From assembly GCA_963971285.1 (NCBI GenBank), contig OZ020259.1:1426001-1490000 (forward strand): a stretch of 64,000 bases of DNA, written 5' to 3'. The notes below the pieces were generated by a model. That model saw only the letters and a list, made by a program, of their open reading frames with translations, searched no databases and was not told where the DNA came from. Below, in pieces: positions 1-59,323 of this stretch (its first letter is position 1; the number at the start of each line of letters is the position of its first letter). Origin of the DNA: Astropecten irregularis (Eukaryota; Echinodermata; Asteroidea; Paxillosida; Astropectinidae). Both the position numbers and the translations under genes were made by a program.

Positions 1-258
1 TTGTCTTGTTCATCGTCTTGTTCATTGTCTTGTTCATCGTCTTCTTTATCGTCTTGTTCATTGTCTTGTTCATCATCTTATTTATTGTCTTGTTCATCGT
101 CTTGTTCATCGTCTTGTTCATCGTCTTGTTCATTGTCTTGTTCATCGTCTTCTTTATCGTCTTGTTCATCGTCTTCTTTATCGTCTTGTTCATCGTCTTG
201 TTCATCGTCTTGTTTATCGTCTTGTTCATCGTCTTGTTCATCATCTCGTTCATCGTCC
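1..258. repeat. 12-bp minisatellite (TCTTGTTCATCG unit)
   Basis: About 21 head-to-tail copies of a 12-bp unit TCTTGTTCATCG, with variants in which TTGTTCATCG becomes TTCTTTATCG or TTGTTCATTG. Because 12 is divisible by three, both strands stay open and give false reading frames (SSCSSSC-like and DDEQDDEQ-like). The array touches the window edge and may continue upstream. It lies in the intron before the first visible KCNQ exon. Confidence 0.9.
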
Positions 259-5649: not shown

Positions 5650-5760
5650 GTTACTTTAACCACAGTTGGTTACGGTGACAAGACTCCAGAGAGTTGGGCT
5701 GGCAAGTTATCCGCTGCGATCCTGGCCGTACTTGGAGTATCGTTCTTTGCACTTCCAGCG
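5650..5760 (+). CDS. KCNQ exon: pore filter and first half of S6
   Basis: This 37-codon exon is bounded by CAACAG at its 5' side and GTAAGC at its 3' side, in phase 0 at both ends. It encodes [11 protein letters not shown], the K+ selectivity signature, followed by the S6 start and ending SFFALPA. Vertebrate KCNQ proteins usually have isoleucine in TTIGYGD; here it is valine, as in most other Kv channels. The hinge proline and alanine of PAG sit at the junction, and the glycine opens the next exon. Confidence 0.95.
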
Positions 5761-8700
5761 GTAAGCCGATGAGATCCTATTTCATGGATTAGGGAGTAAT
5801 TATTCTGTCTTGCACGTGCATAGTTCTGAATTCTGCGCTAACCTTGTAAGCCAAGGATGGAGATCATAAGCGTTGAATAGCACTCCGCACTTGCGCTAAA
5901 AATAGCACACTAGCTCAGACAAACATTGCAACCATGCAAAATGTGTGGTGTGTGCACGCGCGTGCATGCATGGTGTACTGTACACAACGTGTGTGAGTCA
6001 ATGTTTGTCTGACATCCGGGGATTTTGTACACTCATGTGACGTCATTAGTGCGGAGCGCTATTGTGCGATAAGCAGAGCCGTGATGTTACCCCCAAAGGG
6101 TATAGCATTTTCATGAAATGATCAATTAATAAAATACAGCTGCTATATAATTCTTTGCTGAAAAATCATTATCAACGAAGGCAAATTTGGCTTGCCTAAA
6201 ACCAAAGAGTAAATTTCTTGTGCGGTTTCTCCTCACTACACCTGTTAGGACTTAAGGAACTCTGCCTGTAGATATATAGAGATTGTTGGTTTAGCCATTG
6301 TATAAAGACATCTGGACCAGTAAACAGGTGTGTCTTGCTTTGAATCTGCAGCCTGAGGTAAATCCGATTTTGTTTCTTCATCTCAAATTAGTCAATTTTC
6401 ACCTGTCCATATGTTTGGCTGTTTTCTGTTTTCTCCCTTAGGGTATTCTAGGTTCAGGGTTTGCCTTGCAAGTCCAGCAACAGCAGAGGCAGAAACATTT
6501 TGCGAGGAGGAGGCACCCGGCAGCCATGCTTATACAGGTACAAGGGGTGATGGTAGGGCTGTGGGTTAGCAGAGAGGGGTGATGGGATAAGGAGGTGTTT
6601 AGGAGTGGGTTGTGGGTTAGGAGGTGGCACCCGGCAGCCATGCTTATACAGCTACAAGGGGTGATGGTAGGGCTGTGGGTTAGCAGAGAGGGGTGATGGT
6701 TGGATAAGGTGGTGTTTAGGAGTGGGTTGTGGGTGAGGAGGAGGCACCCAGCAGCCATGCTTATACAGCTACAAGGGGTGATGGTAGGGCTGTGGGTTAG
6801 CAGAGAGGGGTGATGGGATAAGGAGGTGTTTGGGAGTGGGTTGTGGTTGAGGAGGAGGCACCCGGCAGCCATGCTCATTCAGGTACAAGGGGTGATGGTG
6901 GGGCTGTGGGTTAGCAGAGAGGGGTGATGGTTGGATAAGGAGGTGTTTGGGAGTGGGTTGTGGGTGAGGAGGAGGCACCCAGCAGCCATGCTTATACAGG
7001 TACAAGGGGTGATGGTGGGGCTGTGGGTTAGCAGAGAGGGGTGATGGTTGGATAAGGAGGTGTTTGGGAGTGGGTTGTGAGGGAGGAGGAGGCAGCCAGC
7101 AGCCATGCTCATACAGGTACAAGGGGTGATAGTGGGGCTGTGGGTTAGCAGAGAGGGGTGATGGTTGGATAAGGTGGTGTTTGGGAGTGGGTTGTAGGGG
7201 AGGAGGAGGCACCCAGCAGCCATGCTCATACAGGTACAAGGGGTGATGGCAGGGCTGTGGGTCAGCAGAGAGGGGTGATAATGGGATAAGGAGGTGTTTG
7301 GGAGTGGGTTGTGGGTGAGGAGGAGGCACCCAGCAGCCATGCTCATACAGGTACAAGAGGTGATGGTGGGGCTGTGGGTTAGCAGAGAGGGGAGATGGTG
7401 GGATAAGAAGGTGTTTGGGAGTGGGTTGTGAGGGAGGAGGAGGCACCCGGCAGTAGGTGGGTTGTGGGATGACAGCTGAAGAGTTGGGTGCTCAGGGTGT
7501 GGGTTATTAAGGTGATGGGTAGGTTGGTTTGGGGTACGGTGTGTGGGTACTGATGAAGGGGGATGGTTACCGGTCAATGGGTGGTGGTCAAGGGTGTTGG
7601 GAGTGGGTTATTGGTGAGATTGATAGAGACCTGGGTGTATGATGGGTGTGAGTAATATTAGGATGGAGATTGCCAGGCGGGTGCTATGGAGTGGAGAGGG
7701 GAGATTGTCCGAGAGGCAGGTGCTTGGGATTAGGTTTTTTTAGGAGACTTGGATAGGATGGTTCGTGTGGAACTTTGTGATCGAAGTTGGAAAATGTTGT
7801 GCCTCATGAGTGCTAGGGAATGAATGGATTGTTCGAAATAATGTGAAAGGTTGGTGTTTGAAAGTGTAATAAAGTAATAAACTGCTGCAAACTGCTCATC
7901 AACCTTTGAGAAAGATCCGGCTAGGATCGAAACGTCAGGCCCTTCCTAACTCCAAGCAAAGGTGTTTATTATGACTTATCTACACTTCATCCTAAAACTT
8001 GATATAATTTTTCTCCGTCCAGTGCCTGTGGAGATGTTATGCAGCGGATCCTAATTCATGTTCCATGGCCACGTGGAAGCCACACTTAAAACCAGTACAG
8101 AGCCCCACAAATAACAAGTGAGTACCCGGAACGTCAATTTAAAAATGAGAGGCCATTTTTATGTTCAAAATTTTACAATCGAGTCATGACTTCTTTTTAT
8201 ATTTATGAAATCCTGTAAAGAAATCAGAATGTTCTATAATAGAGTTTTATTTTATTCACTTCGTAACTAAAGAACCAACATTGATGAATTTTAATAATTT
8301 GGTCAAAAGAGGGCGCTATTTACTAGTTGCTAAAATAAATTTGTTAAAAGCATTTTTGATGGTAATATCCATAGTTAGATGAAACCTCTTCTTTGGTATC
8401 ATTGGTGACCTTGCTCAGCGATGTGTTTTTCGTCTTCTATGCCAATGGGGCAGGAAAAAGCCAGAGGCATCAAATTTTATCGGTTTGTCGTGTCAGGCTA
8501 TTCTCTCTTGTTTTTCATTTCTTTCCAGCGGAATAAAACCAGGATTTTTTTCTTCATGACTTTTGTTGGGAGGGGTCTTGGAAAGAAATAAGTCATATTC
8601 TTGCCTGTTTTTCGTTGAAATTTGGTTTTAATGGCCTGGGAGTGCCGACAGAAAGTGGTAATGATTTCTTATCATTGAGGACATATAATGTTAACCTTCC

Positions 8701-11700
8701 CTTTGTGACGATGCTGCTCATGTGTGAAATGACAAAAAAAATTTGCCTGTTCAGAAAACAAACTTCCTTTTAATAAAGTAAGATTCTTAAACAATATGGG
8801 GACCTTTTGTTTGGGAATTAAATTTTATGCTGGTTTTTTTTGGGGTGAAGGTTAAAGTAAGGGAAAATTGTGTGTGCCATTCTGCACGTTACTTCACTTT
8901 CACTTTCTGCTAGAATTCAAACGATCTGATGTCGATGCATTAACTTATAGTATCCCATAATTCTCCATTCCACCGTTCTACCATTTATGTTTGTCAGCGT
9001 ACAAGCAAGAAGTAACAGACACAGGTAAGAACCTTATACGCGTCCAATCCCTGCTCACCTTTCCGTGGACCACGCCCATCCACCTCAGACCACGCCCACC
9101 CACCACAGACCACGCCCACCTACCACACCCTTCAATATTAGAAATCATGTTCCTTTTGGCGTAATATGTTCATGTGCACCCCAGGAGCGTACAGCACAGG
9201 TGAAAGCCCCGCCTACTTATTGTCATCAGCCCCGCCCACTTACCACCAAACTCAAGATCCTGGTTGTGGACTTCGCCCGACATTTGTTTGACTCCGCCAA
9301 ATTATTTTTGTAATGGTCAGCTGCTGCTGTCCAGGTAAGATGGGATGCTTCCCCTCGGCTCAAAGCACTTGCCATAGACTCTGCCCTTCTGTCAGGCCAC
9401 ACCCACTTTTCCCACATCACACACATACATTGCAGATGCCAATTCTCCACAAAATCATGCGTCGCTAGTTTTGGTGTTTGTGATTTTTTTGTCCTTTTTT
9501 TTCGTACCAGCGTAACCCAGCATAGCACACTAGTGAGTTTCAGCTTAAATAGTCTAGTTTCGCTCTGGATGTGAAATTTTGAAATCCATAAATAAAAAAC
9601 CTAGCTCAATGTGATAACCAATAACTCATTCAATATCAAGATATTCACCCTAATCATTTTATCAAAAATTGACATCAGATTTGTAGAATTTACTAAACCA
9701 AATGTCTAATGCAAGTACATGTAGTTTCAAAAATATGTACAGATTAATTGCTATGTACAAAATATATAAACGCATGATTGTACATCATTAAATATATTGG
9801 CAAAAATTTCCCTTTTTTTTGGTATGATTTTAGCCTTGGAAAGAGTTTTGGTTTATGAAGTTTATTGTTATTTATTTATTTATTTATTTTTTGGTCATTA
9901 ATCATTTATTAGTTTGTTTTGTAACAGTGATAGCGCCCTCTGTTGGTCATTTTATGTTTTCGTGGAAAAAATCATGTAGCTACTGTTTGTATATCTTTTT
10001 GTTCGAAAAATTACAAATGGAAATAACGTTAACAAAAAATGTTTTATTTGAAGAAATGAAAAGCCTGTATATGTAATAATTCTGTAACTGAAATATTTGT
10101 TGCATGACATTTCTATAAACGTGTAATGTCAGATTATTTGAAATCAGAAAAAGATTTGTGATGGTTATTTTTTAAACTACCGTGATTCAAACTGAATTGT
10201 TACAAATCTGTGCTTTTTGAATTTGCAAATTGTTGCCGTCATGTGGTAAAAAAGCACAGCAAAGGCTGTTGCTAAATATGGTAGGTTTGCGGTAGCACCA
10301 TGTTATCTCTTCTGTAAGTGTGAAGTTCTGAGAAGATCGATGGTTTAACACTTAGCGTTCCGAACAGTGTGCTCTGTTCGTCTTCAGGAGGGTGACTGGA
10401 TGATCTCACGGTACACACCAGGGGCCAATTTCATAGAGCTACTTAGCACCAAAAATTGCTTAAGCACCAAAAACCTTGGAAAATAAAATCAGTATGCCAG
10501 CCAAGACTCCTTGTGAATGTTATGCTCAGCAAACAATGGCCGAATACAAGTCAAAAGCAGTAAACATCACATGAAAATTTGGTTGGCAATCCTGTTTGAT
10601 CAAGGAAGACTTTCCATGTTAAAGCAAATTGTTGTGCTTAAGCAGCTCTATGAAATTGGCCCCTGGTCTTCACATTGTCTGCGCTGCACGAAGTCTCAAT
10701 CATGTCTCTTGTCTTTCTGTCCTCCCTGGACGCCTTGCAGTAGTTTCCGGACAAACAATCTCATCTCACGCTTGTCCATCAAGAGGAGTACCAACAGTCC
10801 CATGTTGCACCGGAACAGCGACCGGGTCAAGAAGGGTGTCAACGGTATCTATGACGACGATGAGAAGAAGATGGAGCTCAGTACCGGGGATCGATACGGT
10901 GAGCAAGACTCTATCCGGTCCAGGGGGTCGCATCGCTACCACAATCAACATGCACAAGGTAAGTTGTGGTCTGTTTTGGTGTCCAATTCCATTGCACATA
11001 CTAGATGCGTTCGAGTAGCTTCCCTCGGTCAATACTGGTCACGACACCCGGATCAGCCTCGTAATCGGACACTTGTTTACCTTTTTCGCCATCTTGAATT
11101 TGTGTGACGTATTTCCCACCACTGACTCTGCTCACGAGCAGGGTCACTGATCTCCGTCCCAAGCAGGATACGCTAAAATGGGATCTGGATCAGCAGGATC
11201 ACTGATCTCATGCCTGAAACAAACAGGCCCTTTAGTAGACCAGTAATTCCGATTATTATTAATTGAGTAATCTTTGTTTGTTTTATTGTTGATGTCGAAA
11301 CTTCTGTTTTCTTTGTTTTTTTTCTCTTTGTGTTTTCACACACCAAAGAGACTGTAGGTTTAACCAAGTTAACAGAAGCTCACAAGAACGCCATTCGAGC
11401 TGTCCGAAAAATCAAGTATTTTGTGGCCAGGAGGAAATTTAAAGAAGCGTTTCGACCGTACGACGTGAAAGACGTAATAGAGCAGTACTCATCCGGCCAT
11501 GCAGACATGCTTGCTCGGATCAAAAGCTTACAAGCGAGGTAGGTATCAAGATAACTCTTTTGTTCCTTTCCCGCCTTTAAGCAAAGAGTGCCTTCACTAA
11601 GGTTTATTCATTGTTGTTTGGATGCAGGTTAGACAACATACTGGGAAAACCAGGCCAGCCGGACCGAAGGGTGAAAGGTCGAGGTGGAGGGGACTTGGAA

Positions 11701-12387
11701 CTTTTTGACCCCAGTATCAGCTTACTGTCGCGAGTCGTCAAAGTGGAACGTCGGGTCACGCTGATTGACCGCAAACTGGACATGCTGATTGAACTCTATC
11801 GAGAGGAACGGCACGGGAAAATGCAGGAGAGCCGGAGTGAGGAGAAAGATGATTCCCATGAATCAGAGCTGGACATGGCCCCGAAGGGTTTCCGGCGGAG
11901 GGGCTGGAGCTCGGGTGCCCCACGGCCGCGCGACGCGACAGGGCAGCGGCACGAATCCACGGACACCTCCTCGGCCACATCCCCTGCTGACATCACGGGG
12001 ACAGGGGTCGTGGCGCACAAACTAAAGTCCTCGGACCCTAGCCTCGTGGAGGACGAGGCGCAGGAAGCGGACGTTACAATCAGCTCGTGCCTCCCGCCCG
12101 ATGCGCAGGCGCAGTCCGGGGACACGGCCGGCGCTAAGACACGCCTGGGCACTCTGGCACGGGACTCTGTCGACGAAGTGCCGACAAAAGAAGACGCTGC
12201 CTCCCAACAGGCCGAGCCCAAGAAATTAAGCCGGAGATGGAAACGACCAGGGGCTGTTAGAATCCGGCCGGCAAGGTCGGCCGAATCGGTGAACTGCCCA
12301 CCCTCTGGTGACTCTGTCTCATACAGTAGTGGACGCCAGTCCAGCATGGGAAGCCTAGCACCCGCAGACGGTGAAACAAGAATTTGA
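5650..12387 (+). CDS. KCNQ (Kv7) potassium channel, C-terminal part, spliced
   Basis: This is the 3' portion of a voltage-gated K+ channel alpha subunit of the KCNQ family, a plasma-membrane tetramer that carries M-type current. Exons in order are 5650-5760, 6442-6537, 8023-8117, 8998-9024 (tentative), 10741-10958, 11349-11538 and 11628-12387; phases agree across every junction. Visible parts are the TTVGYGD selectivity filter, S6 with the PAG hinge, helix A with an IQ-like calmodulin site, helix B, and a C-terminal RVVKVERRV block before a long tail. The helix B motif [14 protein letters not shown] and the RVVKVE motif match KCNQ2-5 rather than KCNQ1. This is known family knowledge applied to what is seen. 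S1-S5 exons are outside the window. Confidence 0.95.
5876..6064. mobile_element. Foldback MITE, family D
   Basis: Terminal inverted repeats AATAGCACTCCGCAC (5876-5890) and GTGCGGAGCGCTATT (6050-6064) match at 14 of 15 positions. Inside are CAGACAAACATTGCAACCATG and alternating purine-pyrimidine GTGTGCACGCGCG, plus a perfect TGACGTCA at 6038-6045. A second, shorter copy is nested inside another element at 55202-55328. No coding capacity. Confidence 0.85.
6442..6537 (+). CDS. KCNQ exon: end of S6 and start of helix A
   Basis: This 32-codon exon begins [20 protein letters not shown] and ends HPAAMLIQ at the donor CAG|GTACAA. The acceptor is CCCTTAG. It covers the end of S6, the PIP2-sensitive post-S6 RQKH region, and the first half of the IQ-type calmodulin-binding helix A. 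The last 30 or so bases and the donor are themselves the first unit of the minisatellite that follows, which is very unusual. Reading past the donor hits TGA at 6580. Confidence 0.95.
6504..7456. repeat. 114-117-bp minisatellite containing an exon end and its splice donor
   Basis: There are eight full copies plus a short ninth, with the CAGCCATGCT landmark near 6521, 6635, 6752, 6867, 6983, 7100, 7217 and 7333 and a truncated CACCCGGCAG near 7445. Copy 1 overlaps the coding end of the KCNQ exon. Each copy repeats GGCACCC(G/A)GCAGCCATGC, TATACAG and the following base pair that forms the donor. Copies 1 and 4-8 keep CAG|GTACAA; copies 2 and 3 read CAG|CTACAA. The rest of each unit is G-rich intron sequence. 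Long minus-strand frames here are by-products of a period that is often 117, a multiple of three. Confidence 0.95.
7874..7953 (+). repeat. Family G hammerhead-like repeat, best-preserved copy
   Basis: TAATAAACTGCTGCAAACTG leads, then CTCATCAACC, then TTTGAGAAAGATCCGGCTAG, GGATCGAAACGTCAGGCCC and CTTCCTAACTCC. The order TGAGAAA, GATCC...GGATC stem, GAAACGTC resembles the conserved strand of a type I hammerhead ribozyme (CUGANGA, stem II, GAAA). It lies in the KCNQ intron just before the next exon. Confidence 0.7.
8023..8117 (+). CDS. KCNQ exon: rest of helix A
   Basis: The acceptor CCGTCCAG at 8015-8022 is followed by 95 bp encoding [20 protein letters not shown] and then [11 protein letters not shown], with two bases left over; the donor is AA|GTGAGT. 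WRCYA is the conserved second half of the KCNQ helix A calmodulin site, and the joined motif across the intron is [10 protein letters not shown], as expected for the family. Confidence 0.93.
8118..8997. other. KCNQ intron
   Basis: AT-rich intron with no gene. It contains AGGGCGCTATTTAC near 8303, one of several GCGCCCTC-type motifs in the window. Confidence 0.7.
8998..9024 (+). CDS. Possible 27-bp KCNQ micro-exon
   Basis: A 27-bp stretch sits between TTTGTCAG and GTAAGAAC. With the two bases carried over from the previous exon it reads as nine codons (VQARSNRHR-like) and leaves the same phase, so it can be included or skipped without a frame change. Alternative small exons are known in this linker between helices A and B in KCNQ genes. 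The call rests only on splice-site quality and phase; transcripts would decide. Confidence 0.4.
9067..9245. repeat. CCACGCCCACC degenerate tandem repeat
   Basis: GACCACGCCCACC-like units of about 20 bp are repeated three times at 9067-9130, with looser CCCCGCCCACTTACC units up to 9245. The open frame across it is low complexity. It is intronic and has no family assignment. Confidence 0.7.
9933..9946. promoter_or_regulatory. CTCF-like motif
   Basis: GCGCCCTCTGTTGG fits the reverse-complement animal CTCF core at 13 of 14 positions by eye. It lies in a KCNQ intron. Similar but weaker GCGCCCTC motifs occur near 8303, 23133, 25001, 37594, 62770 and 62791. Binding is a prediction only. Confidence 0.35.
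10340..10396 (-). repeat. Hammerhead-like motif (CTGAAGA...GGAACGC)
   Basis: On the - strand it reads CTCCTGAAGACGAACAGAGC then ACACTGTTCGGAACGC. CTGAAGA matches CUGANGA exactly, CGAACAG/CTGTTCG is a perfect 7-bp stem II, and GGAACGC is a near match to GAAACGTC. It resembles the motif at 36790-36833. Confidence 0.55.
10419..10666. mobile_element. Foldback MITE, family A, copy 2
   Basis: Starts CAGGGGCCAATTTCATAGAG and ends CTCTATGAAATTGGCCCCTG; the 20-base ends are reverse complements of each other. The interior shares the TTAGCACCAAAAATTGC / GTGCTTAAGCAG arms with the copy at 552. It ends only about 75 bp before the next KCNQ exon, close to its splicing signals. Confidence 0.9.
10741..10958 (+). 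CDS. KCNQ exon: linker between helices A and B
   Basis: The acceptor GCCTTGCAG is followed by 218 bp encoding a hydrophilic linker ([20 protein letters not shown]..., then [13 protein letters not shown] and [10 protein letters not shown]), and the donor is AAG|GTAAGT. The phase accepts two bases from the previous exon and leaves one. RLSIKRS is a likely basic kinase-type site. This linker is poorly conserved in the family, so the assignment rests on phase, splice sites and position. Confidence 0.85.
11349..11538 (+). CDS. KCNQ exon: helix B
   Basis: A polypyrimidine tract and CACCAAAG precede the exon, and GAG|GTAGGT ends it. It encodes [20 protein letters not shown] then [20 protein letters not shown] and [20 protein letters not shown]. 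This is KCNQ helix B, the second calmodulin-binding helix, followed by the start of helix C. The [17 protein letters not shown] core is close to KCNQ2-5. The last codon is split over the next junction (AG|G, arginine). Confidence 0.95.
11628..12387 (+). CDS. KCNQ last exon: assembly region and C-terminal tail
   Basis: The acceptor GGATGCAG is followed by 253 codons and a TGA stop at 12385. It begins [10 protein letters not shown] and includes [20 protein letters not shown] and [16 protein letters not shown], which correspond to the helix C/D coiled coil that sets subunit assembly in KCNQ2-5. The remaining 170 or so residues are Ser-, Pro- and Arg-rich and probably disordered, ending [16 protein letters not shown] content rises strongly here compared with the flanking introns. 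A 230-codon antisense frame is a shadow of this exon. Confidence 0.93.
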
Positions 12388-13529: not shown

Positions 13530-14391
13530 ATATGTTCACGTTAGCAGTACGCATGACTACAAATTTCTCCGGAACCATTTGATGCTTATGGAAATTTGGC
13601 TGATGCAGGACTCGAACCCGAATCCTTTGGGGTGGTGTGTGAGGTGTATGACCTCTTGAGCTACCCAGGTGAGCAATCGAACCAGAGACCTGCGGAATCC
13701 CGCCACAAGCTCTAACCCACTTGAGCTATATCTAGCCATTCCGTACTCTCACAAGCAAGACTCGAACCCGAATCCTTAGGAGTATTGTGTGAGGTGTATG
13801 ACCTCCTGAGCTACCTAGAGGAGCAATCGAACCAGAGACCTGCGGAATCCCGCCACTAGCTCTCTCCTACCTGAGCTATATCCATCCATCCCATACTATC
13901 ACAAGCAAGACTCGAACCCAAATTTTTTGGAGTGGTGTGTGAGGTGTATGACCTCCTGAGCTACCCAGGTGAGCAATCGAACCAGAGACCTGCGGAATCC
14001 CGCCACTAGCTCTCTCCTACCTGAGCTATATCCATCCATCCCATACTCTCACAAGCAAGACTCGAACCTGAATCCTTTGGAGTGGTCCGTGAGGTGTATG
14101 ACCTCCTGAGCTACCCAGGTGAGCAATCGAACCAGAGAGCTGTGGAATCCCGCCACAAGCTCTCTCCTACCTGAGCTATATCTAGCCATCCCGTACTCTC
14201 ACAAGCAAGACTCAAACCTGAATCCTTTGGAGTGTTCTGTGAGGTGTATGACCTCCTGAGCTACCCAGGTGAGCAATCGAACCAGAGACCTGCGGAATCC
14301 TGCCACATGCTCTCTCCCACCTGAGCTATCCATCTCGTACTCTTACAACAGAGAATGATAATTCATGGATTCTTACTGCTAACGTGAATAT
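13530..14391. mobile_element. Inverted repeat bracketing the tRNA-like array
   Basis: ATATGTTCACGTTAGCAGTA at 13530-13549 is matched by its near reverse complement TACTGCTAACGTGAATAT at 14374-14391, just outside the array. The arrangement suggests an element whose interior has been filled by tandem tRNA-like units. No transposase is present. Confidence 0.55.
13604..14345 (-). repeat. Tandem array of 150-bp units, each with two tRNA-like modules
   Basis: Five units have an exact 150-bp period (B-box landmark at 13611, 13761, 13911, 14061, 14211). On the - strand each unit holds two tRNA-like modules. Module 1 has TAGCTCAGGAGGTCATACAC and GGATTCGGGTTCGAGTC. Module 2 has TATAGCTCAGGTAGGAGAG, GGCGGGATTCCGC and GGTTCGATTGC. 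Both therefore carry RNA polymerase III A and B boxes at tRNA spacing. The modules do not fold into a convincing full cloverleaf with acceptor stem, so they are called tRNA-derived rather than tRNA genes. Confidence 0.8.
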
Positions 14392-20771: not shown

Positions 20772-22780
20772 CTGAAGGAAAACAAACAAACAAACAAACA
20801 AACAAAATGAAATCAGAATGATCTCTTTGGCAGGGCTGTGATTGCACTGGCATAAGAAATCCTGAAAACATGGTAAAAAGTCCTGAAAATCACATATCTC
20901 CTATACTTTTGTACTAAGAAAGTGACGGAAAAAATTCCTAAAAATCAAGATTTTTCCTCGAAATCTCGAAAGAAGAAATCATTGCAAAGGTGAACATAGA
21001 AAACTTGACTGAAGCAGGATTCAAACCTGCAACCCCCAGAATGTCGTACCGGTGCTCTTCCAACTGAGCTATCAAACCTTATATTGGCAGTGTCCCAAAT
21101 TGTCAATTATCTTTGTTCCTTAATTCAAAACAGAACGGCAGACAAGTCTTGTTTCATTTCATTATAACGTCTAACAGATTTTTTGAGATTCACGTGTGTT
21201 TTGCAAGATGGAATATTTGCCGTCCCGAGCTCGGATGGATACCTACCAGTTGCCTGAAAAACTGCTCCTCGTGCGCTGCTTCCATTTTTCCAAACGCTCC
21301 TCCAGCATCACGGATTGTACCGCCCGTTCCGCCGCCCTGAAATTGAAACAAGATTTTGCTTTGATCTTTATCAAATGATCTTCATGCAGTGTTTTGATCA
21401 AACAGCAAACGCCTGAGCTTGAAGCAAAATTTACATGAGCTACTACAATCCACGAATCAAGCACCCCTAGTATTGTAAGATTTTCGAAGGATTTAGGTCC
21501 AGAGTGAACATAGAATGTGTTTCTCCTTGTTCAGGACAGTTTGTTTTGGAAACAGATGTACTTTCATTAACCCTAACCCACCTCTATACTACAGATATCA
21601 CATGTTTTCTACTGAATACCACAATACACTGCAGTGTGGTTTGTGTGGTTATGCATGGTTTATGATCCAGTTCCCATAAGGTCTATTGCTGATCGCGATA
21701 TCCCGCAACAACGCAAAGCATCAAGGGGGCATCGCGAGCGCGTCGAGTATAGTGGATGCGCCCTTTTAAAGGCTGCCCTGTTGAAATCTAGTTTATGTGG
21801 AGACTGGTAATGTGTGGTAAGCAGTACTGTCCTTCTGTGGTTAAGTGTAGAGGGTTAGGGTTAAGAGTATGGTACAGTATTGGTAATGACCAATGTATAC
21901 CTTTAATAAATCTTACCTTTCCAGCACCGGAGCCATAAGCTCCGTGGTCAGCATAGCCTCGTTGCATTTGGCTAAAATTGAGAGGAAATGAAAATGGCCA
22001 TAGATGAATATGATGTAACAATCATACAGTGTTAATATTCAGGCAAAAAGTTCCGTAGATGACTTTGATTTTGATAGTTTGTATACAATCTCTACAGGGA
22101 GTTTTTATACATGTTTATGCAAAATGTAAAAAATATTTTCTTTAATACGCGATTCCAAACATTTTTCAGTCCTGATCTCAACTTAAAAAATTTCTTTTGA
22201 AAGGAATGACCATCATCAAAGTATGATGAAGCGACACGGTCAATCTGAGAAATTCTTTCCTAGTATGTGACATATATGGTGGTCACATGGTGATCGTCCA
22301 GGTTTTGGTCATGAGTAAAAGAAAACATTGATTTTCATCACACAAATGAGCGTGATGTCCGATTGAGGTCAACATTTCTCAGATTATTTCATGTACATGC
22401 AGGATCAGACAAAGTGTGAGTGCTATTCTGTGACATTTACCAATAATGTATTATACCTTAAAACACCAGTCATGCCAGTAGTACGTAGCAGAAGTTGGCA
22501 TAATGTACCGCAACGTGTTTGTATGGCGTAAGTGCCATATCATTACTGGTCAATGCAAAATGCCACATACAAATCCACACGACCGGCAACCCCAGTTTAC
22601 CAACCCACTTCACTGTCCGTCGTAAATGTTGCATCTTGATATGTTGACACAAATCAGCGTCTCAATTTTATTCAGAAAAACAACAGCAATAGGGTTGATG
22701 TGGATATCGTTTCATTTATCTTACCAGGCTGCCACAAGAGGACGAAAAAGCCGAACAGCAGAAATTCTCGCAAGAGCCAT
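20622..22780 (-). CDS. ATP synthase inhibitory factor 1 (IF1), complete, four exons
   Basis: IF1 is the small mitochondrial matrix protein that blocks ATP hydrolysis by F1Fo-ATPase when the membrane potential falls. Exons on the - strand are 22780-22725, 21971-21917, 21336-21247 and 20771-20622; phases fit and the product is 116 residues. Residues 1-25 form a basic amphipathic mitochondrial presequence (MALARISAVRLFRPLV) with a likely cleavage near RGY|AD. Residues 45-64 carry the inhibitory core IRDAGGAFGKMEAAHEEQFF. Residues 68-107 form a coiled coil with the pH-sensing His pair at 78-79 (KKHHDDE). The protein ends in a short acidic SGSDSD tail. Length fits the family (about 105-110 in mammals). 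Confidence 0.95.
20987..21118 (-). mobile_element. tRNA-derived SINE fragment, copy 1
   Basis: On the - strand: TATAAGGTTTGATAGCTCAG, TTGGAAGAGC, GGGTTGCAGGTTTGAATCC and TGCTTCAGTCAAGTTTTC. A box TAGCTCAGTTGG and B box GGTTTGAATCC sit at tRNA spacing. The downstream TCAAGTTTTC..TGTTCACC and upstream GACA..AATTGACAAT flanks match the copy at 56945, so this is a repeat family and not a tRNA gene. It lies in intron 3 of ATP5IF1. Confidence 0.75.
21247..21336 (-). CDS. ATP5IF1 exon 3 (inhibitory domain)
   Basis: Acceptor AATTTCAG, then 30 codons GGGTGGTIRDAGGAFGKMEA continuing AHEEQFFRQL, and donor CTG|GTAGGT. This is the most conserved part of IF1 and inserts into the F1 catalytic interface. 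Confidence 0.95.
21917..21971 (-). CDS. ATP5IF1 exon 2
   Basis: Acceptor ATTTTAG, then 55 bp encoding (C)QMQRGYADHGAYGSGAGK, and donor AAG|GTAAGA. It contains the probable presequence cleavage site and a Gly-rich linker. Confidence 0.92.
22349..22464 (-). mobile_element. Family C2 foldback element, truncated
   Basis: Shares GATGTCCGATTGAGGT, TTTCATGTACATGCAGGATC, AGACAAAGTGTGAGTG and TTTACCAATAATGTATTATA with the C2 elements at 31108, 36693 and 42623. The left part is missing or diverged. It lies in intron 1 of ATP5IF1. Confidence 0.65.
22725..22780 (-). CDS. ATP5IF1 exon 1 (presequence)
   Basis: ATG at 22780-22778 opens MALARISAVRLFRPLVAA, followed by two leftover bases and the donor GCCTG|GTAAG. 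The arginine-spaced hydrophobic run is a typical matrix-targeting presequence. Confidence 0.93.
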
Positions 22781-24800: not shown

Positions 24801-27608
24801 ATTAATTAAGGATTTCATGCTAACCAGTTAGAAATTAGGTGCTTACCCAGTAAGCGATTAACCAGGATCGCCCAAGCGCAGCTTTTCAATGGGTTTAATT
24901 TAGCAGAACAAATTTTGGAAATTGGCTCTTTGGAACTAGTTTCTTGGCTGCGAGTATATATGATATAAAAAGATTAATCTTCATCGTCCAAACGAAAGTG
25001 CGCCCTCTATTTTATTAACATAAAAGGGTTGCTATACAGAACCTCGCTAGCAACCATAACGGCGCATGTGTTGTCTTGGCGATCGCAAGACACCCACCTT
25101 GGTTACGTGGTTTGTACAAAAGAGCAACCAGTCCCCGTTTGTTTTAAATTCAGAATATGAGTCTGTGCTCCTCTAGGTTCGTATTGTCTTGACAACCCAT
25201 GGCCCCGCCCCTTTCTATCGAGTTTAGTGCCAAGATATCTTTTCCACTTTCCTTGTCAATTCTCTCCAAGACGTCAATCATTCTGCATCCCGTGGGGGTG
25301 CTTATCGCGAACCTCGACACTTCTGGTGATGAAAGGGATGAGTCATTTTCATCTGTTATTCCCAGGCAGTTTTAATGATTCGATATTTCATCTCCATCCT
25401 ATCTTTTTTTTGTTTCTTTGCTGTTGTAAGATTTATCTCCTCATTTTGAGCGAGGAGTGATGTAAACCTTCCCTCGGAGAGGATTATTATGAATGAGTTT
25501 TCAAAGCTATTAGTCTTGATGTAACTTGTTCATCTTGGAGCAAGCTGAATACCGGAAAATCTTAAGCTAAATTACACTCTGACGCCACTGCAGCCTCTGC
25601 TTGATTTTCCCGGATATCTGCGATTCATGACTCCATCGAGTACAGCAAAGTTCAACATTGAAAAAGAAAGGAAGCAAAGGAAATGATACTTGGATTTCGA
25701 ATTGCTTTAAAACGGTATATTTTACAGGTGCAACTTGAGCACATCATTTCCGAGTCATTGCAGCTGGATTTGGCTTGATTGCTCAAGATGCATTAAGTAA
25801 CAAAAATTCCAAGACGATCGAAAATCGGACCACGGAGTCGCCCTTGCCGAAAGGTTCATGTTGAAGTGGTCACAACTTGCGTCATTGGCAAATAGACCAA
25901 TGAGAATATAGGCTGTGCTGTGATAACGTCACATTGCTACTTCGGGGTAATGTTAATTTATGGCAAAGAGGAATTGCTTTTTTTACCATCATAATCCAAG
26001 CGAGGTCTCATTAACTTAAAACCCAGTCAGGCCGGTGGATGTTTGGCGGATAGTAACTACACAGTGGAGGAAATTAAAGTGCTCAGCAGGCAGCTCCCCG
26101 TTGATGAGCTACCTTCGGGCGAGAAAAACATGGCGTGAATATAAAATGAGGCGTTTAAGCTGCGAGAGCGCGAGCAAGATATATCATCGGACCACTTTCA
26201 CCCCTTGAAAATAGACGTCAAAATCTCGGTCGTGAGTTCCTTTGCCAGTGCAATTTCCTACAGGCGTGGAGTGCGGCGTGTGCGTTTACACGCGCACGCA
26301 CTTAGGCAGGCCTACACGAACCGTACCCCGGCGTTATTTATACTAGACAATCACATCATCACAACTGCAAGAGAATTTTATTCGCACCCTAGTTCCTGTC
26401 ACCGACACTGCATAATATCATCTCGAGATTCAGTAGGGACTGACAGAATCTGATGATCGGTTGACTCATTGCGCTCGTCAGAGAGGACAGGGTTTTGTTG
26501 GCAAGGGAGAACGGATAGGAGAAATCTGATCGGTATAAACTCGAGGATTGATATCAAGCTTGACGAGGAGAGAAGTTGTGGGGAAGTCAACTCGCGGTCG
26601 TGCCGATTTTCTGCCCAACTTCAGATTTTTTTTTCTCTCACAACTGTCAGCTTCAGCATTTTTGTTGTTCTTTCGCGTATTTCGCTGCGGCCTCAGGTCG
26701 ACTTTCTGTAATTTGTAAAGAAGTTACCTGCACCACGAGGATACATTACCACCACCCTGCCGTGCAAGTTTCGAAAGTCCAAGTTTGAAAAAATTAACAT
26801 ATTGCAGCCGGTGAAGGCATGTAGGCTTACTAACTGCTGCGTGGACGTATGCAGGTTTTAGCACTGCTGCAACTCGAGCAACCGACAAGAGGAATACAGC
26901 ACCAGTGACCCTTGCACGGAAAACCCAAACCCACACGTGCAGAAAAAACAGATCCACGGCCCGACCAAACCACACGCAGTGCCAACAGAACAGTTGTCAC
27001 GTTCTGTAAGCAACAAGTGTACTAACTTGCTCAGACTATGGACAGATACTGGCGTGGCGTGACGCATTTCTGAACGTGGTTTACTTTCTGCTGGTATGAC
27101 ACGGCATGACATTTCCAGAACTCCACCAGCTCTGTGACACAACACCGAAGGGGGAGATTCGGAGAGAAATATCCAGCCCGAAATAGTGGTGACACTGTTG
27201 TGTTTGCATAGAGGTCGGCGGTATCAACATCGTATACGTCGTGCGCGCATACGTACGTGCGCTAACACCCCACAAATCTGTTTAACGGGTTCACTGAAGT
27301 GCATCTCTTTTGACCGAGGCCAGCGTGTGTGTGTGTACAAAATACCAATCCCAATCACAGTAGCTGAATGGGAGTTGTATTGATCACCAACCTAGCCGTA
27401 CATAATACTGTTTTCCACGGGACTGCATGTACGAGCGGCAGCACGGCACGGGGACAGTTAGTTTAGCTCTGGATTTGCGCGGTCTAAGCCGGCCCAACGC
27501 CTTGTAAAATCAACAACGACCTTGTTCGGTGTTTACAAGAAATACGTGCACGAATTTCACATCATCCAGTGATGTAGCCCACCCCAGTTCAGTGGACACT
27601 AACGAAAA
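24801..27608 (+). promoter_or_regulatory. Intergenic DNA and probable MTCL promoter / 5' UTR
   Basis: Composition shifts from AT-rich to GC- and CpG-richer from about 26100 onward, with no protein-like frame before the ATG at 27609. An in-frame TAA at 27600-27602 just before that ATG shows the coding region does not extend further upstream without splicing. The start site and any 5' UTR introns cannot be fixed from sequence. Confidence 0.45.
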
Positions 27609-30035
27609 ATGAGCAGGATTTCGTCCAAGGAATGGCCCCCATTCCGAACCCACTCGACACCCCCTTTTCTGGATCCGGACGCAAATTCGACAGATGCACA
27701 TGAGGACATTTTTGCCTTGGGCAGGGACGAGGAAGTAGTGGACAAGGAGAAGAGTTTCGTGAGGATTGCCAACCGTGGGAACATCACCCAAAATAGTCTG
27801 CAGTTCTCTGGGGACTGTGTACAGACTCGTACTACGAGTACCACACACACCACCAACAGCCTCGCCATCTACCAGTCACGGAATGCTGGTATCGGTGACG
27901 GCGGTGGTAGTGGTGGTGGCACAGGGCAATCTCAGCAAATCAAGGAAAGGCATGCACGGAACGCAGGAGGCAGGGGCCAGCGTGAGGGAACATCGCCGGG
28001 AGCTCGTGAAGAAGAAGAAGAAGAAACAGCAGAGGATCCATCCCGCGGCAACATCGGCTACCATCAGACGATACCGTTGGCCGTGTCTGGTGTCAGCCTT
28101 TCGGAATCTGGTTATGACGGCGTGCCATCATCTCATTTGTCTTCGGTGATTGGACACAAACGAGACACAGACGAGAGAGAGCTGCACGGTTTGATACTAT
28201 CCACCACCAACAAGATGGATGCCAATGTCTTTAATTCCCGCACTAATAACCAGAGGGATCTTGGCGTACAGCGTCCGCGGCAGAACGGATTACTCCTCGA
28301 CGAAGATGACGATGAAGATTATGTTGACTCTGACCGAGACGAGGATAGTTTGATCCAATTACGCCGCAGGGCCCAGCGACACGAGCAAGACTTAACTACC
28401 ATCTTCCAGTCCTCTTCCTCATCGGAGTGTATGGATTTCTCAATGTATGAAACCTATGACGATCTCTCTTCCTTACTTGCTGCCGAATTATCGGGGGACC
28501 CCCTCCCGAGCACGTGTAGCCTCAGTTTCGAGGAGCTGAACGTTAATAATTCCAGCTCCACATCAAGCAGCAGTACTCTGCTAGCCACGTGGTCCACGAA
28601 TTTAAACACACGCCTGGCAAAATCGACGGAATCCATCCCCACAGACGTGGACTCGGAAGGAAAGAAAATTAAGAAAGACGACGACGAGCCGCTGCAGCGG
28701 TCTCGCAGCTTGGAAAGTCTTAGCCTCACATCGGGTACTTTCCCGTCTGAAGGGGCGCCGTCATGCGACCGAATACAGCAGCAGACATCCGCGACCCGCA
28801 CGACCGTGGCTGTAAATAATAATAATAATGCAAGCAGCCAGAATAATACATGCGGATCGCCGAGGGCGAGCAGCGCCTGCGCGCTTCGTCGTCTAATTAC
28901 GACGGATGCGAGTGTGCGACCGGAGATTGACGATATGGGAGAAGAGGTCACAGCAGAAAGGGAGACAGTACGGACACCCGTAGAACGCTCATTCGCCGAG
29001 GAGGTGCGACTGTGTGCCCTCCCTGTTTACATCCCACCTGCCACCGATAGGATGTTCCATCAGCACCAGCGGGTTCCCTCGCCCCTCATGGAGATGGACG
29101 AAGACGAGGAGGAGGATGGAGCAGGTAAAGCATCAAAGGGGGGCAAGCAGGAGAAGAATAAGGAGGCGGTGAGTGCGAGTGAAGACAAAGCAGCACCGCC
29201 AAAACCTAAGCGTGGCGAGGAACGTAGCGTCCCATGCGCTGAAGAATCGACCAATGAGATGATACAGCGAGTGCCATCATCATCATCATCTTCACCTCCC
29301 GCGGAGAATCCGGGGAGTGTAACAAATACAAAGGAGGAGAAATCCAATGAAGCAGTGAGGACAGGTGATGCTGACACGGGATCCAAGATGGCGGCCGCCA
29401 ACGTGAATGTGCCTCAGATCGTTGAGAGCCTTGTGGAAGATGATGGAGACGCTGATGGAGAAAGGATAGTCCTAAACCTCCAGAGTCGTCTCACCGCCGT
29501 GGAGCAGCTAGCCCGAGATCTTACCGACCAGAATGCCAAACTTCAGGATGAACTGGTGGATATGCGACTGGAGCTCGAGGAGTCCACGGATAAATACCGG
29601 GAGGGTGGCGAGATGGATGAATACCGTGAGATGAAGGCTGAGCTGGACCGTGCCGTCAGGGACTGTCGCATCCTCCAGTACCGGCTCCGCAAAGCCGAGA
29701 GGAAAAACGACGACATCGACCAGGAACGCCAGCACCTAGAGGACCGTCTACGAGCCACTGCTGCCGGCATCCCCGCCCCACCAGCCCCGAGCTCCACCCG
29801 TAGCTCGGGCGACTCTTCCCCTGGAGAAGAGGCCCGTCTCAATGAGATTACCGAACTTCAGCAGGAGTTGAAGACGGCCAAGGATGTATCCATAAGGCTG
29901 CATCAGGAGCTGGAGATGATCGAGGAGAAGCGAGCGAAGACAGAGGAAGAATGCCAGGCTCTGAGGAGGAAACTTGTAGACTCGGAAAATACCAGAAAAG
30001 AGATGAAACGAGAGTTGGAGAAGACACGAACTGAG
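27609..30035 (+). CDS. MTCL/SOGA-family coiled-coil protein, first coding exon
   Basis: This 809-codon exon opens at the first ATG after an in-frame stop and ends at the donor GAG|GTAAGA in phase 0. Residues 1-610 are low complexity, with acidic, Ser, Asn and Glu runs (for example DEDDDEDY near 232, poly-Asn near 400, poly-Ser near 558) and look disordered. From about 618 a long coiled coil starts (NLQSRLTAVEQLARDLTDQN). It contains CRILQYRLRKAERK at 686-699 and AKDVSIRLHQELEMIEEKRA further on. These motifs match the vertebrate MTCL1/SOGA coiled coil, which crosslinks microtubules and influences polarity and autophagy. The rest of the protein lies in unseen exons. No second gene copy is visible. 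Confidence 0.88.
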
Positions 30036-31107
30036 GTAAGAGACTGGCCGTGCTCTGACCATTTTTAATATGTATTTTGTAGCAAAAATTTTAATCAAAA
30101 AGTTCACTTTTCTTCATCACTGATAACAAGAATTCAAAGAAACACCATTGACCTCTACTCCAAGTTCTCCAACAGTGGATGGTTTGCACCTACCCATTTC
30201 AAATCACACCATTTACATGTACCCAGCAGACTGCCCCGCCCCCATTGGGACAGAATGATATTCAAAAATACTTACGAACAGAAATGAAAATTTTATACAG
30301 AAATTAACATTTTGACATGAAATGATAACCACGACAAAAATACATGTCATGCTGATTTAAGTTGCAATGACAGCGTTTGTTTTCAGTCATGAAGGCTTGG
30401 AAAATGAAAATTAGGGTGTCAAATATCAGTCCTATCGAATCAATTTCAGTTGTTTTAAATTTGTAGTTTCCCCACAACCTAAAATAGTAAAATAATAACC
30501 CAAACAACTCTTGGTCTTCAAAATTGTAATTAAAAATGTTGGCATAATCCTCAAGCCCACACACATTATCAAATCGATTCCATTATGGTGTATATAACTC
30601 CCGGTTTGAAGCCAGACAGAATGGCATTAATTACACAGGCAGTCGGGCATTATAAATGTGACGTAAATAAAAATGTCTGCACAGATGCTACAGCAAAATC
30701 CTGCTGTATATTTTTATCGGTACCCTTTTCTCTGCAAAGTACAGCTTCCACGGCTATGTAGGCTTACGGGTGAATGCATATTATGATCACAAGCTTAAAT
30801 GTCAAAATGTGACTGGTGAAATACATACCAGTAGTACTGGTCGCCGCCATGTTTGGTTGCCATGAACTTTGGATTGTTTTATGTTGATCATAGTGAGATG
30901 ATACTTACTACAGATAGTTGATACCTATACATGTCATATCGAGGTGATACCTATACTTATCACCAGTATGTATACATCACACAGCAAAGTCAACAGCCCT
31001 TGCACATTATCATGGAAGAAATAACCTCCCAATGGTATTGTTTACCTGTTATAATATTGCCTTTCAGAATACATGAAACCACCATTTCATACAGTGATTA
31101 TAAGTTC
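30036..31107. other. MTCL intron 1, repeat-poor start
   Basis: The intron starts GTAAGAG. No open frame in this stretch resembles the continuing MTCL coiled coil. AT-rich. Confidence 0.6.
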
Positions 31108-34090: not shown

Positions 34091-34131
<41 letters not shown>

Positions 34132-34531
34132 CGGCTCCGGCTCCGGCTCAGGCTCAGGCTCAGGCTCAGACTCAGACTCGGGCTCATCCTCAGGCTCAGG
34201 CTCAGGCTCAGCCTCAGCCTCAGCCTCAGCCTCAGCCTCAGCCTCAGCCTCAGGCTCATCCTCAGGCTCAGGCTCAGGCTCAGGCTCAGCCTCAGGCTCA
34301 GCCTCAGGCTCAGCCTCAGCCTCAGCCTCAGCCTCAGCCTCATCCTCAGACTCAGGCTCCATTTCGTGAATCCACAACTGGCATCAAAATAGAGGTTCTT
34401 GACTGCGGTTCGCAAGTAGATTCTCTGGTTTGAAAAAGAAGACAGAGCTTCAACTGCAATGAAAAACCACATGCCATGATATTCTCAGCATATGGATGAC
34501 AGAGACGAAGCCGGAGCCGGAGCCATAGCCT
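34084..34531. mobile_element. Foldback element with hexanucleotide arm (family F), copy 1
   Basis: A (GGCTCA/GCCTCA)n array at 34090-34362 is followed by CCATTTCGTGAATCCA, GCGGTTCGCAAGTAGATTCT, GTTTGAAAAAGAAGACAGAG and CATATGGATGACAGAG, and ends with a short opposite-strand hexanucleotide arm GAAGCCGGAGCCGGAGCC. The array translates as SGSG, RLRL or EPEA depending on frame; none is a gene. Confidence 0.85.
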
Positions 34532-46917: not shown

Positions 46918-47203
46918 CGGCTCCAGCTCCAGCTCCGGCTCCGGCTTCGGCTCCGGCTCCGGCTCCGGCTTCGTCTCTGTTTTCACACGCTGAAAATATA
47001 GCTTGTGGTTTGCCATTGAAGCTGAAGCTCTGTTGTCGTTTTCAAACCAGAGAATCTACTTCCTAACTAGAGCCAAAAGTCTCTGTTTTGTTAACTGTTA
47101 TTTTGAAATGGATTCATGAAATGCAGGCGGAGCCGGAGCCGGAGCCTGAGCCTGAGCCGGAGCCGGAGCCTGAGCCTGAGCCGGAGCCTGAGCCGGTGCC
47201 GAG
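46918..47203. mobile_element. Family F element with hexanucleotide arms on both ends
   Basis: Left arm TCCAGCTCCGGCTCCGGC-type (46918-46975). The central body has GCTGAAAATATAGCTTGTGG, CAAACCAGAGAATCTACTTC and ATGGATTCATGAAATGCAGG. The right arm is GGAGCCGGAGCCTGAGCC-type (47129-47203). The two arms are reverse complements, so the element folds back on its own microsatellite. Confidence 0.88.
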
Positions 47204-56944: not shown

Positions 56945-57130
56945 TATTGAAAAGTGAACAAAGAAAAATTGACTGGAGCGGGATTCGAACCTTCGACCTC
57001 ATGAATACCCGTACAGGCGCTCTACCAAATGAGCCATCCAGCCCTATGTTGTATGGTGGTGTCCCTAATAGTCAACTATCTTTGTTCAGTCAGTTTCACT
57101 TGTGGTTATTTGATGATTATAAAAATGTAT
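56945..57130 (-). mobile_element. tRNA-derived SINE, copy 2
   Basis: On the - strand: GGGCTGGATGGCTCATTTGG, TAGAGCGCC, GAAGGTTCGAATCCCGC and TCCAGTCAATTTTTCTTTGT. The A and B boxes are well kept. The flanks (TTGTTCACTTTTC and GACTATTAGGGACACCACC) match the copy at 20987, which argues for a SINE. A GTGGTTATTTGATGATTATA block follows on the + strand side. Confidence 0.8.

Positions 57131-59246: not shown

Positions 59247-59323
<77 letters not shown>

What the first reader, a model, noticed from the sequence alone, without database searches (positions are those of the whole stretch)
6504..7456. A KCNQ exon end and its splice donor have been amplified as a minisatellite
The tandem unit (114-117 bp, eight full copies) starts inside the coding exon and includes the codons for HPAAMLIQ and the donor. 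Six of eight copies keep a usable CAG|GTACAA donor; copies 2 and 3 have lost it (CTACAA). The true exon is therefore followed by five decoy donors, each with the same exonic context. Use of a decoy would retain intron and meet TGA at 6580, giving a channel cut within helix A. It is a natural test of donor choice, and copy number may vary between individuals and tune KCNQ output.
Basis: seen in the sequence. Interest (0 to 1): 0.75.

Follow-up and report, generated by a model that had tools for sequence, protein, structure and literature searches.

The report
Repeated splice-donor array in echinoderm KCNQ
In an echinoderm potassium-channel gene, the end of one coding exon and the splice signal after it have been copied in tandem eight times, a kind of repeat described before mainly in amphioxus, which offers a natural test of how cells pick the right splice site.

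Summary
Window 6504-7453 is a minisatellite of eight 114/117-bp units plus 20 bp of a ninth. Each unit carries the last 34 bases of a KCNQ exon and the first 80-83 of its intron. Copies 1 and 4-8 read CAG|GTACAA; copies 2-3 read CAG|CTACAA. A gap-free alignment to solved KCNQ5 and the same intron position in a paralogue confirm the boundary. The host is an echinoderm (bindin exon; mitochondrial AAA at conserved Asn). Closest known: amphioxus 'mirages', reported not to disturb splicing; human IFI6, whose repeat donors are used, is the counter-precedent. All five decoys would meet the same TGA (6580), 302-770 nt before the junction, so NMD is predicted. The true donor is the weakest of five KCNQ donors scored, identical to its decoys, and 21 of 98 array GTs score higher, so its 9-mer does not single it out. 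Exon-derived and intron-derived parts of the copies diverge about equally: nothing shows decoys kept by selection; a small post hoc excess of synonymous changes hints at exchange with the exon. Another exon-edge array (a globin last exon with its stop) lies in the same genome. Most likely a mirage-type minisatellite with mostly silent decoys; tuning of KCNQ is unproven.

The parts
5650..5760 (+). KCNQ pore/S6 exon (start of exon not fixed), donor GCG|GTAAGC
   Evidence: Ion_trans_2 E 1.6e-10; aligned to KCNQ5 without gap; boundary printed
6442..6537 (+). True KCNQ exon [32 protein letters not shown], phase 0 at both ends; its last 34 bases are copy 1's exonic part
   Evidence: no Pfam family on its own; same intron position in paralogue
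6504..7433 (+). Minisatellite, eight full units of 114 or 117 bp, each exon tail (34 bp) + intron start (80-83 bp)
7434..7453 (+). Partial ninth unit (20 bp of exon-derived sequence)
6535..6543 (+). True splice donor CAG|GTACAA (copy 1)
6649..6657 (+). Dead donor CAG|CTACAA (copy 2)
6766..6774 (+). Dead donor CAG|CTACAA (copy 3)
6880..6888 (+). Decoy donor CAG|GTACAA (copy 4)
6997..7005 (+). Decoy donor (copy 5)
7114..7122 (+). Decoy donor (copy 6)
7231..7239 (+). Decoy donor (copy 7)
7348..7356 (+). Decoy donor (copy 8)
6580..6582 (+). First in-frame TGA met by each of the five decoy transcripts
7454..7700 (+). G-rich intron downstream, sharing short words with the unit (13-bp TTGGGAGTGGGTT the longest); possibly the older ground from which the unit's intron part came
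   Evidence: blastn-short of one unit's intron part against 7454-8020
8023..8117 (+). Next KCNQ exon [31 protein letters not shown], acceptor TCTCCGTCCAG|TGC
   Evidence: no Pfam family on its own
11357..11539 (+). KCNQ C-terminal exon; start approximate
   Evidence: PF03520 95.3 bits against cut-off 25
11620..12387 (+). KCNQ C-terminal exon; start approximate
   Evidence: PF03520 36.5 bits against cut-off 25

Best explanation
A mirage-type minisatellite in an echinoderm KCNQ2-5-like gene. A segment running from inside the exon across the donor into a G-rich intron was duplicated (slippage or unequal exchange between short G-rich repeats, inferred) and grew to eight units by further unequal exchange and conversion (inferred from the mosaic of variants). 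Only the first unit is still exon. Splicing mostly joins 6537 to 8023 (inferred), because only that donor closes a normal-size exon (96 nt; decoys would make 441-909 nt). Decoy use would be occasional and unproductive, giving a stop at 6580 and predicted decay. The array is thus mainly a by-product, not a regulator.
For: Boundary: [12 protein letters not shown] aligns without a gap to KCNQ5 LIQCVWRSYAAD over 96 residues, E 2.8e-43; the paralogue on C16 breaks at the same place, LVQ|CAWR (junctions read by eye), with no repeat over that boundary. Exon-derived and intron-derived parts of the copies are about equally diverged (0.062 and 0.068; 0.064 and 0.074 among copies 2-8), so no sign that decoy boundaries are preserved; 2 of 7 intronic copies have lost GT. 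The five decoy transcripts meet TGA 6580, 302-770 nt before the junction. Minisatellites are common here: 18 TRF rows with period at least 30 and at least 2.5 copies, about 13 separate arrays by coordinates, this one included, in 219 kb. A second exon-edge array exists in this genome. Mirages are reported not to interfere with splicing in PMC3087553 and PMC3902484, passages read.
Against: No RNA was seen. The 9-mer cannot explain choice of copy 1: the decoys' 9-mers are identical and 21 of 98 array GTs score higher. In human IFI6 downstream repeat donors are used (PMC4526556, passage read). An intron-proximal preference among equal donors is known (recalled); SRSF1 can favour intron-proximal sites (PMC5585400, passages), and all six GT donors, copy 1 among them, have a purine-rich GAGGAGGAGG in the 34 bases before them that might bind SR proteins (recalled). 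The excess of synonymous changes in the exon part does not fit pure neglect of the copies.
Confidence: 0.72

Rival explanations
1. Decoy array as a splicing rheostat: decoys compete with the true donor, decoy use gives NMD substrates, and copy number sets KCNQ output.
For: Five decoys with identical 9-mer and near-identical 34-nt exonic context; weak true donor; the five decoy products are predicted NMD targets; IFI6 precedent of used repeat donors.
Against: Amphioxus arrays reported silent in mRNA; no conservation signal on decoy boundaries; the two nearest copies are dead; one assembly only, no RNA.
Confidence: 0.13
2. Array as an intronic enhancer: each unit adds 6-8 G-runs after the donor, which help the weak true donor; the donor copies are passengers.
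For: True donor lacks G at +5 (score 0.5; paralogue's CAG|GTACGT 5.6); 6-8 runs of at least three G in the 83 nt after each boundary. That G-runs enhance weak donors is recalled knowledge.
Against: No functional data; the intron downstream of the array is also G-rich, so one unit may suffice.
Confidence: 0.08
3. Assembly artefact: fewer copies in reality.
For: Tandem arrays can be misassembled; reads were not available.
Against: Copies differ by 3.5-12% from each other with unit-specific variants; the contig is 15.4 Mb long.
Confidence: 0.05

Closest known systems
Amphioxus 'mirages' (Adh3; globins BflGb6 and BflGb9; troponin C; PGBD5)
   Same: Minisatellite-like tandem units spanning an exon-intron boundary, one real boundary and several intronic look-alikes, not all with intact splice signals (PMC3087553 and PMC3902484, passages read).
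   Different: Here in an echinoderm, in KCNQ, unit 114/117 bp (Adh3 10-72, globin 150-160 per PMC3087553), unit lengths multiples of 3. Undisturbed splicing and length variation are reported there, untested here.
Human IFI6 (6-16/G1P3) donor minisatellite
   Same: A minisatellite that supplies repeated donors at an exon end (Turri 1995, seen only as a citation and through a passage of PMC4526556).
   Different: There two downstream repeat units serve as donors and give three mRNAs; here all five decoys meet a stop. The unit there is much shorter (recalled).
Intron gain by tandem duplication of AG|GT (Rogers' model; potato RdRp; human internal tandem repeats)
   Same: Duplicating a segment with CAG|GT makes a piece that itself begins GT and ends AG, as here. 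PMC2812944 (passages) says repeats at exon-intron boundaries may form novel introns; Rogers seen as cited in PMC3087553, the potato case in a listing only.
   Different: No new intron here: the repeats lie in an intron at a position shared with the paralogue.

Membership tests
Mirage-type boundary minisatellite (as described in PMC3087553) | Tandem units that span an exon-intron boundary | tested here: met
   each of eight units holds the 34-bp exon tail + intron start
Mirage-type boundary minisatellite (as described in PMC3087553) | Many but not all units keep the splice signal | tested here: met
   6 of 8 keep GT
Mirage-type boundary minisatellite (as described in PMC3087553) | Concerted evolution among units | tested here: inconclusive
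   Units 88-96.5% alike; mean identity 94.1-93.5% at distances 1-4, 91.3-92.1% at 5-7
Mirage-type boundary minisatellite (as described in PMC3087553) | Length differs between haplotypes | not testable with these tools
   One assembly, one place
Mirage-type boundary minisatellite (as described in PMC3087553) | mRNA spliced normally | not testable with these tools
   No RNA data
IFI6-type donor minisatellite | Downstream repeat donors used in transcripts | not testable with these tools
   No RNA data
KCNQ (Kv7) channel gene | KCNQ_channel C-terminal domain and K-channel pore | tested here: met
   PF03520 95.3 and 36.5 bits against cut-off 25; Ion_trans_2 41.2 bits against 22.5 (the two short exons at the array gave no Pfam family); best solved match KCNQ5
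Host: Echinodermata | Bindin gene; mitochondrial AAA = Asn (both as markers recalled) | tested here: met
   PF02084 115.9 bits, cut-off 22; the four AAA codons in the COX1 stretch read all fall on Asn of the best solved chain, 8ugh

The most novel reading that the evidence does not exclude
Exon tail and intronic decoys exchange sequence, so the decoys are a reservoir of exon-tail alleles: deleting whole units by unequal exchange would put a decoy in the exon's place, and coding selection would reach into the intron. The copies show it faintly: 4 of 6 exon-part changes are synonymous (expected 0.25-0.27, P 0.035-0.049) and 5 of 6 lie at third positions against 5 of 17 in the intron part (one-sided Fisher 0.035; post hoc). 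Besides, every stretch from donor 1 to a decoy boundary begins GT and ends AG, so a transcript that used a decoy could in principle be re-spliced to the exact normal mRNA; by pyrimidine content copy 4's boundary ranks fourth among AGs of this intron.
Probability: 0.18. Interest if true: 0.62.

Novelty: new member of a known kind. Interest (0 to 1): 0.42.

Why it matters
It carries the mirage phenomenon from amphioxus to an echinoderm, in a conserved ion-channel gene, and the same genome has a second exon-edge array, so nucleation of minisatellites at exon edges may be a wider deuterostome habit. The array is also a natural minigene: six identical donors in nearly identical context, the last five at 117-bp steps, with one normal product and five predicted decay substrates, which lets proximity and exon-length rules of donor choice be read from ordinary RNA data.

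Tried and rejected
Amphioxus as host: first idea after finding the mirage papers; rejected, since the GFP family had 0 hits (which the tool says does not show absence; that amphioxus has many GFPs is recalled) and bindin and the mitochondrial code point to echinoderms. Sea star as class would rest only on mtDNA contig length 16,335 bp, scaffold sizes and assembly size, so it is not claimed. Boundary-spanning repeats at other exons: of 20 exons only the KCNQ exon at 6442-6537 has a tandem boundary array; hits in L013-L016 and L022 are long repeats (728-2056 bp) taken as gene duplications and set aside; the 25-bp hit in L019 lies in an intron. Some of those exon edges were Pfam or tblastn match edges, not true boundaries, so arrays could have been missed. 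Recursive splicing at decoy AG|GT: 55-65% pyrimidines in 20 nt before the boundary, but with AGs inside and a purine-rich upstream, hence weak. RNA accessibility: the true donor is predicted more open (0.088) than the GT decoys (0.007-0.048), dead copies lowest; one model, no weight given. The donor matrix is recalled human-like frequencies, not from this species. Two donor coordinates (5761, 8118) were off by one and were redone. Exon lengths printed are one short. One search covered the wrong strand of a globin locus and is void. Solved-structure search with a globin exon did not help with the taxon.

Full report
What is there. TRF and an independent repeat finder both give one array at 6504-7453. 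A script set the units in register: eight full units starting at 6504, 6618, 6735, 6849, 6966, 7083, 7200 and 7317, of 114 or 117 bp, then 20 bp of a ninth. Each unit begins with a version of GAGGAGGAGGCACCC..CATGCTTATACAG, the tail of a coding exon, and continues with what is intron in copy 1. Six of eight boundaries read CAG|GTACAA; copies 2 and 3 read CAG|CTACAA. The array is far beyond chance (TRF score 1585, 93% matches). A search of the 475.7-Mb assembly with the unit matched only this place, C23:1432504-1433430 (8 matches; lower bound by the tool's own words).

The gene. Five stretches of the window belong to one KCNQ channel: pore exon 5650-5760 (Ion_trans_2, 41.2 bits), 6442-6537, 8023-8117, and C-terminal exons from about 11357 and 11620 (PF03520, 95.3 and 36.5 bits against a cut-off of 25). 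The two short exons on either side of the array gave no Pfam family on their own; they rest on the next result. The first three exons joined align to a solved KCNQ5 chain over 96 residues without a gap, E 2.8e-43, straight across the junction [12 protein letters not shown]. PF03520 found one other locus, on C16 (3 matches in all), KCNQ1-like by eye; its exon ends LVQ|, followed by CAWR, the same intron position and phase, with donor CAG|GTACGT and no repeat over the boundary.

The host. A bindin exon (PF02084, 115.9 bits; that bindin marks echinoderms is recalled) and the mitochondrial COX1 on contig C168, where the four AAA codons of the stretch read stand at Asn of the best solved chain and ten TGA are read as Trp, make it an echinoderm. 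GFP-family genes, which amphioxus has in number (recalled), were not found (not proof of absence). The class is not shown.

What decoy use would do. From 6538 the frame runs [14 protein letters not shown] and stops at TGA 6580; each of the five decoy products carries that stop, 302, 419, 536, 653 or 770 nt upstream of the junction, so nonsense-mediated decay is expected from the usual 50-55-nt rule (recalled). The protein, if made, would end at the start of the calmodulin-binding helix A (position of helix A recalled). The unit lengths are multiples of 3, which does not help because of this stop.

Donor strength. With recalled human-like donor frequencies the true donor and the five decoys all score 0.5. 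The other donors scored are 4.1 and 4.9 in this gene and 1.7 and 5.6 in the paralogue, the last at the same site, so this is the weakest of five. It still outscores 91.6% of the 3,816 plus-strand GTs of the window. Among 157 GTs in 6443-8000, 33 score higher (five of them within rounding) and the six identical sites share ranks 34-39; inside the array 21 of 98 score higher, the same five included. Strength alone therefore cannot pick copy 1; exon definition probably does (a 96-nt exon against 441-909 nt, inferred), helped perhaps by 6-8 G-runs after each boundary.

History of the array. Pairwise identities are 88-96.5%. Exon-derived and intron-derived parts are about equally diverged (0.062 and 0.068; 0.064 and 0.074 among copies 2-8), so nothing shows that the decoy boundaries are kept by selection. 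Within the exon-derived part, 4 of 6 variable sites are synonymous (P 0.035-0.049 by transition weight) and 5 of 6 are third positions, against 5 of 17 in the same phase of the intron part (one-sided Fisher 0.035). This is a small post hoc test; if real, it means copies have at times stood in the exon's place or been converted by it. The intron after the array shares only short G-rich words with the unit (longest 13 bp), consistent with the unit having grown out of an already G-rich intron.

Is it exceptional in this genome? In 219 kb of this genome (the window and L023-L038), 18 TRF rows had period at least 30 and at least 2.5 copies, about 13 separate arrays by their coordinates, this one included. 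I examined 29 exons for arrays at their edges: 5 of this KCNQ gene, 4 of the KCNQ1-like gene, 11 globin middle exons and 9 globin last exons. Two have one: this KCNQ exon, and one globin last exon (L019, C8 near 31.229 Mb), whose end AAGMVDTME with its TAA stop is the start of a 40-bp array of at least 14.6 units running to the end of the locus held; it was the only array TRF found in that 17.5-kb cluster, so the other eight last exons there have none. The exons were those at hand, not a random sample, and some edges were match edges rather than true boundaries.

What is known. In amphioxus such arrays are called mirages: Adh3 of two Branchiostoma species, globins BflGb6 and BflGb9, also troponin C and PGBD5; they are length-variable, carry AG/GT in many but not all units, and are reported not to disturb splicing (PMC3087553 and PMC3902484, passages read; the original Adh3 paper is not held). 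In human IFI6, repeat units do serve as donors (PMC4526556, passage read; the original Turri 1995 paper is not held). Tandem repeats at exon-intron boundaries have been tied to novel introns in humans (PMC2812944, passages read). Searches of the held library for mirage or minisatellite with exon-intron boundary and splice site (3 papers), sea star with minisatellite, splice and intron (0 papers), tandem repeats, intron gain, splice sites and echinoderm (15 listed) and KCNQ, minisatellite, tandem repeat and splice donor (10 of 37 listed) showed no earlier echinoderm or KCNQ case among the titles and abstract openings listed; most subscription papers are not in that library.

Verdict. It is a new member of a known kind, outside the lineage where the kind was named. 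Shown: structure, gene, boundary, host phylum, predicted products. Inferred: that copy 1 is the donor mostly used, that decoys are by-products, and how the array grew. Tuning of KCNQ is possible, not shown.

Noticed in passing
L019:1-586 (minus strand of the fetched locus; C8:31228811-31229396): The end of a globin last exon (AAGMVDTME and its TAA stop) is amplified as a 40-bp minisatellite of at least 14.6 copies; eight sister last exons in the cluster lack it.
   Followed up: partly
window 13605-14329: A second array, 150 bp x 4.8, whose complement looks like tRNA-derived SINE sequence (GGTTCGA-type boxes, by eye); ARAGORN finds no tRNA gene in the window; Rfam finds two tRNA matches elsewhere, at 21006-21078 and 56970-57043, both minus.
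   Followed up: partly
window 6438-7607, minus strand: Long stop-free frames (146, 240 and 242 codons) antisense to the array, probably a by-product of a period divisible by 3 in C-rich sequence.
   Followed up: no
window 3-257, 34091-34359, 46918-46970, 47128-47201, 59247-59323: Several hexamer and 12-mer arrays (GGCTCA/GAGCCT type, GTCTTGTTCATC), some giving SGSGSG or EPEPEP-like frames.
   Followed up: no
window 27603-30068: An 821-codon open frame with a coiled-coil-like C-terminal part resembling MTCL1/SOGA proteins (recalled); no Pfam family over its cut-off.
   Followed up: no
G000:C131:32162-33484 and C25:9951047-9952018: COX1 without internal stops on C131, possibly a bacterial contaminant contig, and a COX1 stretch with 7 TGA on the large contig C25, possibly a nuclear mitochondrial copy (neither was read).
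   Followed up: no
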